DNA of 64,000 nucleotides, taken from NCBI RefSeq assembly GCF_027925385.1, contig NZ_AP027142.1, positions 3,186,501 to 3,250,500 on the forward strand, written 5' to 3'. The stretch comes from Methylocystis iwaonis. GTDB lineage: Bacteria > Pseudomonadota > Alphaproteobacteria > Rhizobiales > Beijerinckiaceae. Position numbers and translations under genes: made by a program. A model generated the notes under the pieces. The model saw nothing but the letters and a program-made list of their open reading frames with translations. It had not been told where the DNA came from and did not search any database. The first letter of the stretch is position 1; each line of letters opens with the position of its first letter. Positions 50,870 through 54,411 of the stretch are shown piece after piece.

Positions 50870-51583
50870 GATGCCACCCCCAAAAATTCAGCCTCACCCA
50901 GTCGATCTACCATTTTCATCATAAAGTCGGTCTCCTATGATGACGGCCTAGAAAATCGCCTCGTCATTCTAATTGATGGGCTAAAACGCGAAACTCAGGT
51001 TTGGCCGGGAAGCAGCATCTCATTTTGGGAGCGAATCGGGGAACGAATGCGCTTCGAATACACGCTTGATTTGGCCGGCCGCCACGCTTGGCAGCCACAG
51101 GCTCTAAAGGGCGAGCTTGAGCGCCGTTTCCCAAGCCTGCGCTCTGTTGGCCGGTCGCGGTTTGTCATGCTGACAGCGCTCGCCGAGCTGGTCACGGCTA
51201 ATCGCAAGCATACGACGATCCGGTATACGCCGCACGCCGTCGAATTCCCCTGCGAGTCCACCCTCCCACTCTTTGTAGTAGAGAAAGGCGCAAGTCACCT
51301 AACGGCCCGCCAGAGGGGCGAGTTACGCATTGCCCGCGTCCAATACAAGAATATCAAGGACCTGAACGATCAGGATGCCGTGTCAGACGGATTCCGTTCA
51401 AGGCACGAACTTCTGACCGCACTGCAGGGTTTTTATGGGCCTCTAAAGCCGACTGATTTTGTGAGCATTTATCATTTCGTTCCCACTGGCAAACAGCCGA
51501 ACGTCAGAGTGGCTACCTCGCGGCGCGCTAGGACAAGTTCAGCAACAGTCAGGACCCAAACCCCTCAGGGAACAACGATTTGA
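50783..51583 (+). CDS. ASCH-like (PUA superfamily) domain protein
   Basis: Up to 266 residues. The central and C-terminal parts resemble ASCH domains, notably ELRIARVQYKNIKDL and the DGFRSRHELLTALQGFYGPL..TDFVSIYHF ending. The family binds nucleic acids or modified nucleotides. The start is uncertain: the GTG at 50783 overlaps the divergent kinase gene by 87 bases, and the conserved part begins near FIIKSVSYDD (~50916) with no standard start nearby. An ATG at 50871 opens a 17-codon frame that would join it only through a frameshift. Its 3' end overlaps the convergent GNAT gene by 35 bases. Confidence 0.55.
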   Translation: MSEAKPVGQKRAQPRLSNARNSKNRNRSHDATPKNSASPSRSTIFIIKSVSYDDGLENRLVILIDGLKRETQVWPGSSISFWERIGERMRFEYTLDLAGRHAWQPQALKGELERRFPSLRSVGRSRFVMLTALAELVTANRKHTTIRYTPHAVEFPCESTLPLFVVEKGASHLTARQRGELRIARVQYKNIKDLNDQDAVSDGFRSRHELLTALQGFYGPLKPTDFVSIYHFVPTGKQPNVRVATSRRARTSSATVRTQTPQGTTI

Positions 51584-52730
51584 GCCGCTTGTATCGAATC
51601 TCTAGCAACTGAACAATCGACTGCGGATGGCTCTTAAGGGCACCTTTTTTGATGGCCTCGCTGAGCGGAATCGCTGGATCGAGATGACCCACAAGCAGAA
51701 AATCAATCACCTTGATGGAACTCTTCTGTCTTACCCAGCTAACCAGCTCTTGGTCCAGAAAGACCGATCTCTTGGCGGTCAATCGGCGCACATCAGCGAT
51801 GTTGGAAGCAATTTGCACGGACTCGATCACGCCTAACGTCGCGACGGACTGCGAAAACTGCGATCCTCCCTTGGTCACATAAAAGAATAGGAGATCACCA
51901 GGCCTGAGCTGATTGTTGGGAGAGTTACAAAGATAGACCTTCTTAATGGTGTTGCCGGGCTTGCCGGTCGATTCGGCGGTAGCCGTCTCGTCCATGGCGG
52001 CTTCCGGAAACAGTTTTTCGTGATATGTAGGCCAAATCGGCACCACAAACTTCTGAATATCGGGGCCGTCAAAATATCTCGGGTAAATCCTATGCGCGCC
52101 AGCCAGCAGTTCCTCATCGGGAAAGAGAGTCGGCGCGCCTCTTATTATTGCCTTCTCGAAGACATGCTCGCCGTTCTCGGCGACTCTCGAATCGAAGATA
52201 CCATACTCCTTCAGGAGCCCAATGAGCTCCTTCTGCTTGGGGAAGGCTGTCACATAAACCGTGTCGTAGCCATTACGCTGAGCATGCCAGAAAACCTGCT
52301 TGAGCAGCTGTTCGCCGAGTTTTAACCCCCGATACCCCTCGCCGACCTTGAACGTGCACATCTTGAGCACTCGGTCTCCCGGTGAGGTAGTTCTGGCCTC
52401 GTCACGAGTCTCGTCCTTCCTGATGACGACGGCCGCAAGATTTTCACCGTCCCAGACGACCCAGCATGGACGATGCTCGTTACGGCACTTCTCTGCCCAC
52501 GTATCAAAGGGGTAATCCGAGCGAAGGCCATCAAAAAGTGGGGCTTCAAAATCTAGCTCATGAGCCCCAACTTCCGCGACTGAAGGGAGAAAGACCCTAG
52601 AGCTGGCCTCGCTTGTCTGGACAGCTCCCCGCGGATTTTGAGTGGATCTCTGCCGGGGTTTGCCGAACGCGGGGCGTTTCGATTTTGTCGCGGCGGCGGG
52701 AGGGCCTAGGCCCGACCAGAGCTGCGACAA
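51549..52730 (-). pseudogene. GNAT-PUA C-terminal part of a split PIN-GNAT-PUA protein
   Basis: The present frame opens with a TTG inside the IS3 end, and its first 31 codons are IS sequence; authentic sequence starts at 52637. A GNAT acetyltransferase domain follows (WVVWDGENLAAVVIRKDE, MCTFKVGEGYRGLKLGEQLLKQVFWHAQRNGYDTVYVTAF). The C-terminal ~130 residues (KKVYLCNSPNNQLRPGDLLFFYVTK..ATLGVIESV) look like an EVE/ASCH-type PUA domain. Codon phase at the IS junction matches the PIN gene on the other side, so both were probably one protein of ~520 residues. It may still be expressed from the IS. Confidence 0.65.
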
Positions 52731-52745
52731 AATCGACGGCGATGG

Positions 52746-53573
52746 TCATGCGGCCATCGCCGTTTCCTTGATGCCGAAGTAGGCCTCGTCGGGCGTGCGC
52801 CCGTCAAGCGCCGTATGCGGGCGCCCCTCGTTGTAGAAGGCCAGATAGCGGCCGATCGAGGCGCGCGCCTCGGACATGCTGTCATAGGCCTTGAGATAGA
52901 CCTCCTCGTATTTCACGCTGCGCCACAGCCGCTCGACGAAGACATTGTCCCGCCACGCGCCCTTGCCGTCCATGCTGATCGATATTTTCGCATCGAGCAG
53001 CACGCCGGTGAAGTCGAGACTGGTGAACTGGCTGCCTTGGTCCGTGTTGAAAATCTCTGGCTTGCCGTATTTCGCCAGGGCCTCCTTCAAGGCTTCGACG
53101 CAGAACTCCGCCTCCATAGTGATCGACACGCGATGCGACAGGACGCGCCGCGTGAAGACGTCGACGACCGCTGCGAGATAGACGAAGCCGCGCCGCATCG
53201 GGATGTAGCTGATGTCCGTCGCCCAGACCTGGTTCGGCCGTTCGATCTTCACCCCGCGCAGCAGATACGGGTACACCTTGTGTCCCGGCGCAGGCTTGCT
53301 CGTGTTCGGCCGCCGATAGAGCGCCTCGATCCCCATCCGCTTCATCAATGTCGCGACATGCCGGCGGCCCACGGCGACGCCCTCGCGCCGCAGAAGATCG
53401 CGCAGCATCCGCGCGCCCGCGAAGGGGTGTTCGAGATGCAGCGCGTCGAGACGGCGCATCAGCTCGAGGTCCTCGGCCGAAACCGGCCGCGGCCTGTAGT
53501 AGACGGAGCTGCGGGCGACGCCCAGCGCCTTCGCCTGCCGGGCGATCGAAAGATCGTGATCGCGGTCGATCAT
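52746..53573 (-). CDS. IS3-family transposase OrfB
   Basis: 275 residues. HTH_21 region (GARMLRDLLRREGVAVGRRHVATLMKRMGI), then the rve integrase core with DDE residues in VWATDISYIPM, FNTDQGSQF and NVFVERLWRSVKYEEVYLKAY. It is expressed as an OrfAB fusion by -1 slippage at the AAAAAG run ending orfA; its own ATG overlaps the orfA stop. Appears intact. Confidence 0.93.
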   Translation of the reverse strand: MIDRDHDLSIARQAKALGVARSSVYYRPRPVSAEDLELMRRLDALHLEHPFAGARMLRDLLRREGVAVGRRHVATLMKRMGIEALYRRPNTSKPAPGHKVYPYLLRGVKIERPNQVWATDISYIPMRRGFVYLAAVVDVFTRRVLSHRVSITMEAEFCVEALKEALAKYGKPEIFNTDQGSQFTSLDFTGVLLDAKISISMDGKGAWRDNVFVERLWRSVKYEEVYLKAYDSMSEARASIGRYLAFYNEGRPHTALDGRTPDEAYFGIKETAMAA

Positions 53574-53878
53574 CTTTTTGCGCTCAGCAATCCCGCTTTT
53601 GTGAGCGCGCCGGACAAAAAATCGTTCTCCAACGTGAGTTCGCCGATCTTCGCGTGAAGACCCTTCAGGTCGACGGCGGCCTCTTTCGGCTCCGTCTTAT
53701 CCTGCCCGAAAACGCCGGCCGCGCCTTCCAGCAACTGGCTTCGCCACGTCGTGATCTGGTTCGGGTGGACGTCAAACTGCTGCGCCAGCTCGGCCAGCGT
53801 CTTCTCGCCCTTGATCGCGGCCAAAGCCACTTTCGCCTTGAAGGCCGGAGAATGCGTCCGGCGGCTTCGCTTCGTCAT
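53570..53878 (-). CDS. IS3-family OrfA
   Basis: 102 residues: helix-turn-helix (FKAKVALAAIKGEKTLAELAQQFDVHPNQITTWRSQLL) and a C-terminal leucine-zipper-like coiled coil (LHAKIGELTLENDFL). It ends SAKR with the codons GCA AAA AGA TGA, a slippery stretch for -1 frameshifting into OrfB. Confidence 0.92.
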   Translation of the reverse strand: MTKRSRRTHSPAFKAKVALAAIKGEKTLAELAQQFDVHPNQITTWRSQLLEGAAGVFGQDKTEPKEAAVDLKGLHAKIGELTLENDFLSGALTKAGLLSAKR

Positions 53879-53916
53879 CGAATGCTCCTGATTCGCAGCG
53901 AGAATCCTCGCCGCTG

Positions 53917-54411
53917 TCAGGCAGAAAATCCACTCAAGCTACTGTCCGAATTCGTGAGGCCGGCTCTCCTGTCCTGGTCGAAATTTCGTTTGAGCCAGCT
54001 CAGCGCATCCTGGACAGTCAAGACGCGCGATCCAAGTCCGGCGGCGGCAGCCCGTTTATGCAGGCCTACATCCTCCGATACCAGGAGATCGATCGCCTTT
54101 TTGCTAAGAGAGTGTAGGAGCGTCGCATCGACCTTATCGTTAGGCTTCTTCAGTGCTCCGAACGCTTCCTCGAGAACCGCATCGGTCGGCTTGCCACTCC
54201 GCTTCAAAGGTAGAAATTTCTTGATTTTGCTGAGCGTCTTACGCTTCCGCACTGCATCCTTGTCGCGTTCAATGTCCTCTTTGGAAGCTTCGTGAACGAA
54301 GAGCTTGATTCCATGTTCGCCGCACTTGCGATGCATTTCTGCAAAATGGTCTGCGACCTCTTTGTCGTCCTCAAGCTCGATAATGATGTTCGTGTCAATC
54401 AAAAGCTTCAT
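53917..54411 (-). CDS. PIN-domain protein, N-terminal part of the IS3-split protein
   Basis: Residues 1-158 (54411-53938) are native; the last six codons and stop come from the IS3 end. PIN-fold acidic residues are visible: Asp in LLIDTN at residue 6, acidic residues near 44-47, Asp95 in DATLLH, and the pair in LLVSEDVGLHKRA near residue 110. PIN domains are Mg-dependent RNases. The start overlaps the ASCH stop by ATGA, so the two were translated together. Truncation removes only the downstream GNAT-PUA part, so an active nuclease could still be made. Confidence 0.75.
   Translation of the reverse strand: MKLLIDTNIIIELEDDKEVADHFAEMHRKCGEHGIKLFVHEASKEDIERDKDAVRKRKTLSKIKKFLPLKRSGKPTDAVLEEAFGALKKPNDKVDATLLHSLSKKAIDLLVSEDVGLHKRAAAAGLGSRVLTVQDALSWLKRNFDQDRRAGLTNSDSSLSGFSA

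What the first reader, a model, noticed from the sequence alone, without database searches (positions are those of the whole stretch)
51549..54411. IS3 element splits an in-frame PIN-GNAT-PUA fusion protein
The PIN frame is at a codon boundary at 53938 and the GNAT-PUA frame is at a codon boundary at 52637, exactly the two IS3 edges. Deleting 52638-53937 joins codon 158 of the PIN gene to the GNAT-PUA frame, giving one open frame of about 520 codons. The GNAT frame's present start is inside the IS. A single chain with a PIN RNase, an acetyltransferase and a nucleic-acid-sensing PUA domain is unusual and may be a self-contained effector.
Basis: partly seen in the sequence, partly recalled or inferred. 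Interest (0 to 1): 0.78.

Follow-up and report, generated by a model that had tools for sequence, protein, structure and literature searches.

The report
IS3-split PIN-GNAT-PUA toxin-type defence gene
In a likely methane-oxidising bacterium a jumping gene has landed inside, and split in two, a gene that in its relatives makes one three-part protein (predicted RNA cutter, acetyl-group transferase and nucleic-acid binder); the design is already known as a predicted toxin-antitoxin or phage-defence system, so this looks like a recently broken copy rather than a new invention.

Summary
The split is real; its edges were misread. The IS3-family (ISRj2-like) element spans 52599-53967 (1369 bp) with a CCT target duplication; five further copies in the genome are letter-identical. 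Intact relatives settle it: 107 of the 120 listed homologues (720 found) are at least 450 aa, and the halves abut on them with no residue missing. Expected intact length is 496, not 520. The insertion lies in the predicted nine-residue PIN-GNAT linker. The architecture is not new: it is PADLOC candidate PDC-M11A and the PIN-GNAT-EVE protein of Bell et al. 2020. Nor is it self-contained: an ASCH gene (PDC-M11B) lies directly upstream in 80 of 80 kept loci, an AAA_17 gene downstream in 51. M11B is homologous to a protein that one phage record names GevA antitoxin, beside a PIN-less 'GevT toxin'. Best reading: a recently IS-disrupted copy of a known, untested toxin-antitoxin-like defence cassette.

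The parts
54408..54872 (-). ASCH-domain gene (PDC-M11B, GevA-like), predicted antitoxin or sensor; its stop codon overlaps the PIN start
   Evidence: PADLOC PDC-M11B E 2.3e-29; Pfam ASCH only E 0.024, below cut-off, in the window copy but in 38 of 42 aligned relatives at E up to 0.01; model matches ZmASCH TM 0.89; a public prediction starts later and gives 136 aa (P0124)
53968..54411 (-). PIN-type half of the split gene, native codons 1-148 (the open frame runs on to 53917 through 16 IS-coded residues)
   Evidence: PDC-M11A model positions 1-149, E 7.4e-35; Pfam PIN models only weak (E 0.018 and 0.079, below cut-off), PIN_3 in 11 of 54 relatives; Asp 6, 46, 50, 92, 95, 114 kept
53968..53970 (.). 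target duplication CCT, right copy
52599..53967 (-). IS3-family element, ISRj2-like, 1369 bp
   Evidence: five identical full copies in the genome; Bradyrhizobium plasmid copies 83% identical over the full length, annotated ISRj2 family
53570..53878 (-). IS orfA
   Evidence: NCBIfam transpos_IS3 N-terminal part, E 1.9e-11
52746..53573 (-). IS orfB (transposase)
   Evidence: NCBIfam transpos_IS3 260.7 bits, cut-off 160
52596..52598 (.). target duplication CCT, left copy
51549..52598 (-). GNAT plus PUA-like (EVE/ASCH-type) half of the split gene, 349 native residues and stop
51047..51583 (+). second ASCH-domain gene on the opposite strand, tail to tail with the GNAT-PUA half; a lineage-specific neighbour
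   Evidence: Pfam ASCH E 5.8e-4, just below cut-off; same place in 3 of 80 loci, L039-L041; 10 proteins found including the window's own
50318..50869 (-). AAA_17 P-loop kinase-like gene
   Evidence: PF13207 E 1e-17; downstream in 51 of 80 loci
48699..49949 (-). tyrosine integrase beside the cassette, likely its means of arrival
   Evidence: PF00589 E 1.7e-19

Best explanation
A 1369-bp IS3-family element with a CCT target duplication splits one PIN-GNAT-PUA gene whose unbroken relatives are single proteins, and that gene is predicted to be the toxin-like effector of a known, untested phage-defence candidate (PADLOC PDC-M11; the PIN-GNAT-EVE proteins of Bell et al.) that the insertion has likely inactivated. 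Shown here: IS borders, phase, colinearity with intact relatives, the adjoining ASCH gene and the AAA_17 gene. Inferred working of the intact system: the ASCH protein (GevA-like) likely acts as antitoxin and sensor; when infection disturbs it, the PUA-like domain of the large protein would dock on a nucleic acid, possibly a modified one, the GNAT domain would acetylate a target such as charged tRNA, and the PIN domain would cut RNA, so that the infected cell stops growing. In this copy the two halves can only be made apart, the second from a poor start inside the IS, so the system is likely off.
For: IS borders, duplication and five identical copies. Shared AGG codon and phase. Halves abut without a gap on 107 homologues of at least 450 aa; the window has the majority residue at 96 of 99 positions conserved in at least 95% of them. 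PADLOC PDC-M11A for both halves in order and PDC-M11B next door. ASCH gene upstream in 80 of 80 loci, AAA_17 downstream in 51 of 80, and AAA_17 fused to the same chain in L113. Bell et al. describe PIN-GNAT-EVE with ASCH and AAA_17 and predict a toxin-antitoxin or defence role (passages). M11B family includes a protein named GevA antitoxin beside 'GevT toxin'. PIN Asp residues and ASCH residues Tyr38 and Ser119 conserved.
Against: No toxicity, antitoxin or phage assay was found for any PIN-bearing member; Bell et al. say none of the modules was characterised. The GevT and GevA names are labels in one record and I found no paper behind them. The GNAT target is unknown, and its usual acetyl-CoA loop has Lys where I recall Gly (53 of 54 rows). 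PIN and EVE are recognised by Pfam in a minority of relatives (PIN_3 11 of 54, EVE 8 of 54) and neither above E 0.01 in the window pieces. The fold-comparison rows shown cover GNAT and the C-terminal domain, not PIN. That the split copy is dead is inferred; both halves remain open and conserved.
Confidence: 0.62

Rival explanations
1. Functional split: both the PIN stub and a GNAT-PUA protein are made from the split locus and act as two proteins, the second resembling the natural PIN-less GevT.
For: The insertion lies in the predicted 9-residue linker (residues 145-153), leaving both domains whole. PIN-less GNAT-PUA genes exist naturally. The GNAT-PUA frame is open from a TTG 15 nt after the transposase stop, on the transposase strand.
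Against: No Shine-Dalgarno-like stretch is visible before that TTG (by eye). The public gene prediction for this contig starts the protein well inside the GNAT domain (P0004, 273 aa). The element is too recent for erosion to tell (0 mismatches among copies). A hit in a 9-residue linker is about 2% by chance, one case only.
Confidence: 0.08
2. The intact system is not a toxin but an RNA or DNA surveillance or processing enzyme: the PUA-like and ASCH domains recognise modified phage nucleic acid and PIN and GNAT act on the invader's RNA or proteins directly.
For: M11B and the C-terminal domain have the ZmASCH fold, and ZmASCH binds nucleic acid and cuts single-stranded RNA (PMC5615036, abstract and passages). 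Bell et al. discuss recognition of modified bases and degradation of acetylated tRNA as alternatives.
Against: PIN and GNAT domains are common toxins (Bell et al.), and the M11B relative is named antitoxin.
Confidence: 0.25
3. Coincidence: two neighbouring genes that were never fused, whose frames happen to be in phase.
For: Phase alone has a chance of 1 in 3; PIN-less GNAT-PUA genes occur.
Against: Relatives up to 74-76% identical to the GNAT-PUA half are single proteins that run through the joint with no gap.
Confidence: 0.01

Closest known systems
PADLOC candidate system PDC-M11 (M11A + M11B)
   Same: Both halves match M11A in order and over nearly its whole length; the adjoining gene matches M11B.
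   Different: M11A is cut by an IS here. No paper in the held library carries the name.
PIN-GNAT-EVE / ASCH / AAA_17 operons (Bell et al. 2020, PMC7641849; passages read)
   Same: Same domain order, same two partner genes.
   Different: Short ASCH gene without a helix-turn-helix, a second ASCH gene on the opposite strand, IS insertion. Pfam EVE does not match the window's C-terminal domain but matches 8 of 54 relatives weakly.
GevT-GevA of Escherichia phage PhiR47_2 (record PV340567)
   Same: GevA is an M11B homologue (142 bits); GevT has the GNAT and PUA-like domains.
   Different: GevT lacks PIN and precedes GevA; in the window the ASCH gene comes first.
ORFD and ORF5 of Methanothermobacter prophage psiM100
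   Same: ORFD is PIN-GNAT-PUA, ORF5 an M11B homologue.
   Different: Archaeal virus; reversed gene order.
ZmASCH of Zymomonas mobilis (PMC5615036, abstract and passages; PDB 5gus)
   Same: M11B fold, TM 0.89 at 38% identity; Tyr47 and Ser128 places kept.
   Different: Lys53 place is not Lys; nuclease activity of M11B is untested.
ISRj2-type IS3 elements of Bradyrhizobium
   Same: 83% identical over the full 1369 bp.
   Different: Sequence divergence only.

Membership tests
PADLOC PDC-M11 | M11A profile matched along its length | tested here: met
   Positions 1-149 and 155-474 of 486, in order, in the two halves
PADLOC PDC-M11 | M11B gene adjoining | tested here: met
   E 2.3e-29, overlapping start and stop
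PADLOC PDC-M11 | M11A gene intact | tested here: not met
   Split by the IS
PIN-GNAT-EVE (Bell et al. 2020) | N-terminal PIN domain with catalytic Asp residues | tested here: inconclusive
   Window piece only E 0.018 and 0.079; PIN_3 in 11 of 54 relatives, best 3.8e-6; Asp 114 in 54 of 54, Asp 92 and 95 in 53, Asp 46 and 50 in 52, Asp 6 in 47 with 7 gaps. Which Asp is catalytic is recalled from the PIN family
PIN-GNAT-EVE (Bell et al. 2020) | central GNAT domain | tested here: met
PIN-GNAT-EVE (Bell et al. 2020) | C-terminal EVE domain | tested here: inconclusive
   PUA-like fold shown, nearest solved match ZmASCH; Pfam EVE absent in the window piece at E up to 1, present in 8 of 54 relatives, best 4.4e-4
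PIN-GNAT-EVE (Bell et al. 2020) | ASCH gene and often AAA_17 gene in the operon | tested here: met
GevT-GevA toxin-antitoxin | GevA-type antitoxin homologue | tested here: met
   GevA scores 142 bits with the M11B profile
GevT-GevA toxin-antitoxin | two-domain GNAT-PUA toxin without PIN | tested here: not met
   Relatives of the window gene carry PIN in the same chain
GevT-GevA toxin-antitoxin | toxicity relieved by the partner | not testable with these tools
   Needs an expression assay
YqfB-type ac4C amidohydrolase (for M11B) | Lys21-Thr24-Glu74 triad with Arg26 | tested here: not met
   By motif spacing the Thr place is Glu in 42 of 42
YqfB-type ac4C amidohydrolase (for the second ASCH gene) | Lys21-Thr24-Glu74 triad with Arg26 | tested here: inconclusive
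   Lys, Thr and Arg at the same spacing in 11 of 11 rows; the Glu place could not be assigned
ZmASCH-type ssRNA nuclease (for M11B) | Tyr47, Lys53 and Ser128 in the cleft | tested here: not met
   Tyr and Ser 42 of 42; the Lys53 place is Gln in 33, Arg in 4 and Lys in 2 of 42
IS3 family | IS3 transposase, two overlapping orfs, terminal inverted repeats, short target duplication | tested here: met
   frameshifting between the orfs was not tested

The most novel reading that the evidence does not exclude
The IS has turned a three-domain toxin into two proteins at its domain border: the PIN half stays under the antitoxin operon, and the GNAT-PUA half is remade by re-initiation just after the transposase gene, giving a transposon-driven, PIN-free GevT-like protein, a natural experiment that separates the nuclease from the acetyltransferase.
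Probability: 0.06. Interest if true: 0.6.

Novelty: new member of a known kind. Interest (0 to 1): 0.3.

Why it matters
It anchors a locus that gene callers break into fragments to a widespread, untested cassette and corrects its geometry. The comparative side is the useful part: the ASCH gene is a constant neighbour (80 of 80 loci), it is homologous to a named antitoxin (GevA) and has the ZmASCH fold, and in Bombella favorum the AAA_17 partner is fused to the same chain. Together these give clear bench predictions for PIN-GNAT-PUA proteins, which Bell et al. listed as uncharacterised.

Tried and rejected
Never-fused genes: rejected. Another copy of the large gene in the genome: with PDLC04421 only the two halves matched. 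Integration repeats: no direct repeat of 18 or more bases in 47000-56500; no tRNA within 13 kb of the cassette in the window. YqfB-like deacetylase role for M11B: Thr place is Glu. BapA/Brig3 (PMC13160076, passages): BapA is a glucosyl hydrolase whose barrel is said to resemble ZmASCH; a parallel in fold only. Second ASCH gene against solved structures: chance ankyrin matches only. C-terminal domain and M11B as sequence paralogues: hhalign probability 37%, P 3.5e-4, suggestive only. No EVE or PIN chain is among the 50 rows shown; that excludes nothing. Papers: PDC-M11, 0; PADLOC/embedded-defence terms, 10 listed, none opened; GevT, 127 papers, 20 listed, unrelated by title; GevA with antitoxin, 54 papers, 8 listed, none relevant by title; GNAT toxin/ASCH/prophage, 252 papers, 10 listed, only Bell et al. 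on this architecture by title. [quoted passage not shown]. PMC10853773, passages only, held no such fusion in them. PMC9599836, passages only, says the YqfB triad is shared by the four enzymes it tested.
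Full report
Observation. On the minus strand a PIN-type frame begins at 54411 and a GNAT-PUA frame ends at 51549, with an IS3 element between. A search of the window's own genome found five further full copies of the element; each has the window's 1369 letters without a mismatch, which points to recent movement. Diverged copies (83-90%) and partial ones are there too. The common borders put the window's copy at 52599-53967, with imperfect terminal inverted repeats and a CCT duplication; duplications are 3 bp in four of the six copies and 4 bp in two. 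The transposase scores 260.7 bits on NCBIfam's IS3 model (cut-off 160); Bradyrhizobium plasmid copies 83% identical are annotated as ISRj2 family.

Frame. Insert plus duplication is 1372 bp. The duplicated CCT is an AGG codon in both frames: codon 148 of the PIN half and the first codon of the GNAT-PUA half. Native residues sum to 496. I did not rejoin the gene; the halves were searched apart.

Intact relatives. The GNAT-PUA half has 720 homologues at E up to 1e-3; of the 120 listed, 107 are at least 450 aa, 9 are 330-449 and 4 are shorter, one of these four being the window's own public prediction. Aligned with those 107, the PIN piece ends and the GNAT piece starts in the same column, so no residue is missing. 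At 99 positions conserved in at least 95% of the 107, the window has the majority residue at 96. In the genome collection 129 stretches encoded a relative and the best 80 were kept; 74 of the 80 carry the full length in one frame and 6 do not, some of these on short contigs. In 385 genomes of the class the PDC-M11A profile hit 50, but only six genomes had a match over 100 bits: the window's own, four full-length ones and one PIN-less one; most of the rest are short matches within the GNAT region. Of 100 other relatives searched with the GNAT-PUA half, two had a match, both in frames without a PIN match and with an M11B gene within 1 kb.

What it is. Both halves match PADLOC's PDC-M11A in order, and the overlapping upstream gene matches PDC-M11B. 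Bell et al. 2020 (PMC7641849, passages) describe PIN-GNAT-EVE proteins whose operons almost always hold an ASCH gene and often an AAA_17 gene. They predict a toxin-antitoxin role, report closeness to type I restriction and CRISPR-Cas systems, and say that none of the modules has been characterised. The window has all three genes: ASCH 54408-54872, the split gene, AAA_17 50318-50869. In the 80 loci the ASCH gene is directly upstream on the same strand in 80; its frame is at least 215 codons from stop to stop in 50, which would fit a helix-turn-helix fusion but was judged on length only. AAA_17 is downstream within 1 kb in 51. In L113 (Bombella favorum) AAA_17 is fused to the C-terminus in one frame of 695 codons, a strong hint that the parts work together.

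Toxin and antitoxin. A tblastn of P0006 hit 16 of 50,697 phage records. One, PV340567, names the PIN-less relative 'GevT toxin' and the next gene 'GevA antitoxin'; GevA belongs to the M11B family (142 bits). The archaeal prophage psiM100 has the PIN-bearing form (ORFD) followed by an M11B protein (ORF5). I found no paper behind the Gev names in the held library, so they are labels rather than evidence. In plasmids, 33 of 72,556 records match and 18 over at least 80% of the query.

Host and setting. The genome has three PF02461 (particulate methane/ammonia monooxygenase) matches over cut-off, so the host is likely a methane oxidiser. The cassette sits beside a tyrosine integrase, has lower G+C (0.56) on either side of the IS than most of the window, and lies between kdp genes and TonB/ExbB genes: likely a horizontal acquisition.

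Verdict. The architecture is known, the protein has constant partners, and the broken copy looks recent. How the intact system works is predicted, not shown.

Noticed in passing
window 51047-51583 (+): A second ASCH-domain gene on the opposite strand, tail to tail with the GNAT-PUA half, in the same place in L039-L041 (3 of 80 loci); Lys, Thr and Arg at YqfB's catalytic spacing are kept in 11 of 11 rows. It might reverse an acetylation that the GNAT makes; untested.
   Followed up: partly
L113:7968-10052: Bombella favorum: PIN-GNAT-PUA and AAA_17 in one open frame of 695 codons.
   Followed up: partly
L057, L064, L066, L067, L068, L070: A PIN-less GNAT-PUA gene lies within 8 kb of the PIN-bearing one in 6 of 80 loci.
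   Followed up: no
L125 (psiM100, AF301375) 1054-3979: The annotated 'inserted fragment IFa' of the prophage ends inside the PIN-GNAT-PUA gene ORFD.
   Followed up: no
L112:7911-9518: A relative whose large gene is in two frames and whose ASCH gene is in two pieces: another apparently broken copy.
   Followed up: no
L002: Another identical IS copy lies at a target with the same letters CCTGTCC as the window's, hinting at a target preference.
   Followed up: no
alignment A1, P0006 residues 238-244: The GNAT acetyl-CoA loop reads RGxKxGE, with Lys in 53 of 54 rows.
   Followed up: partly
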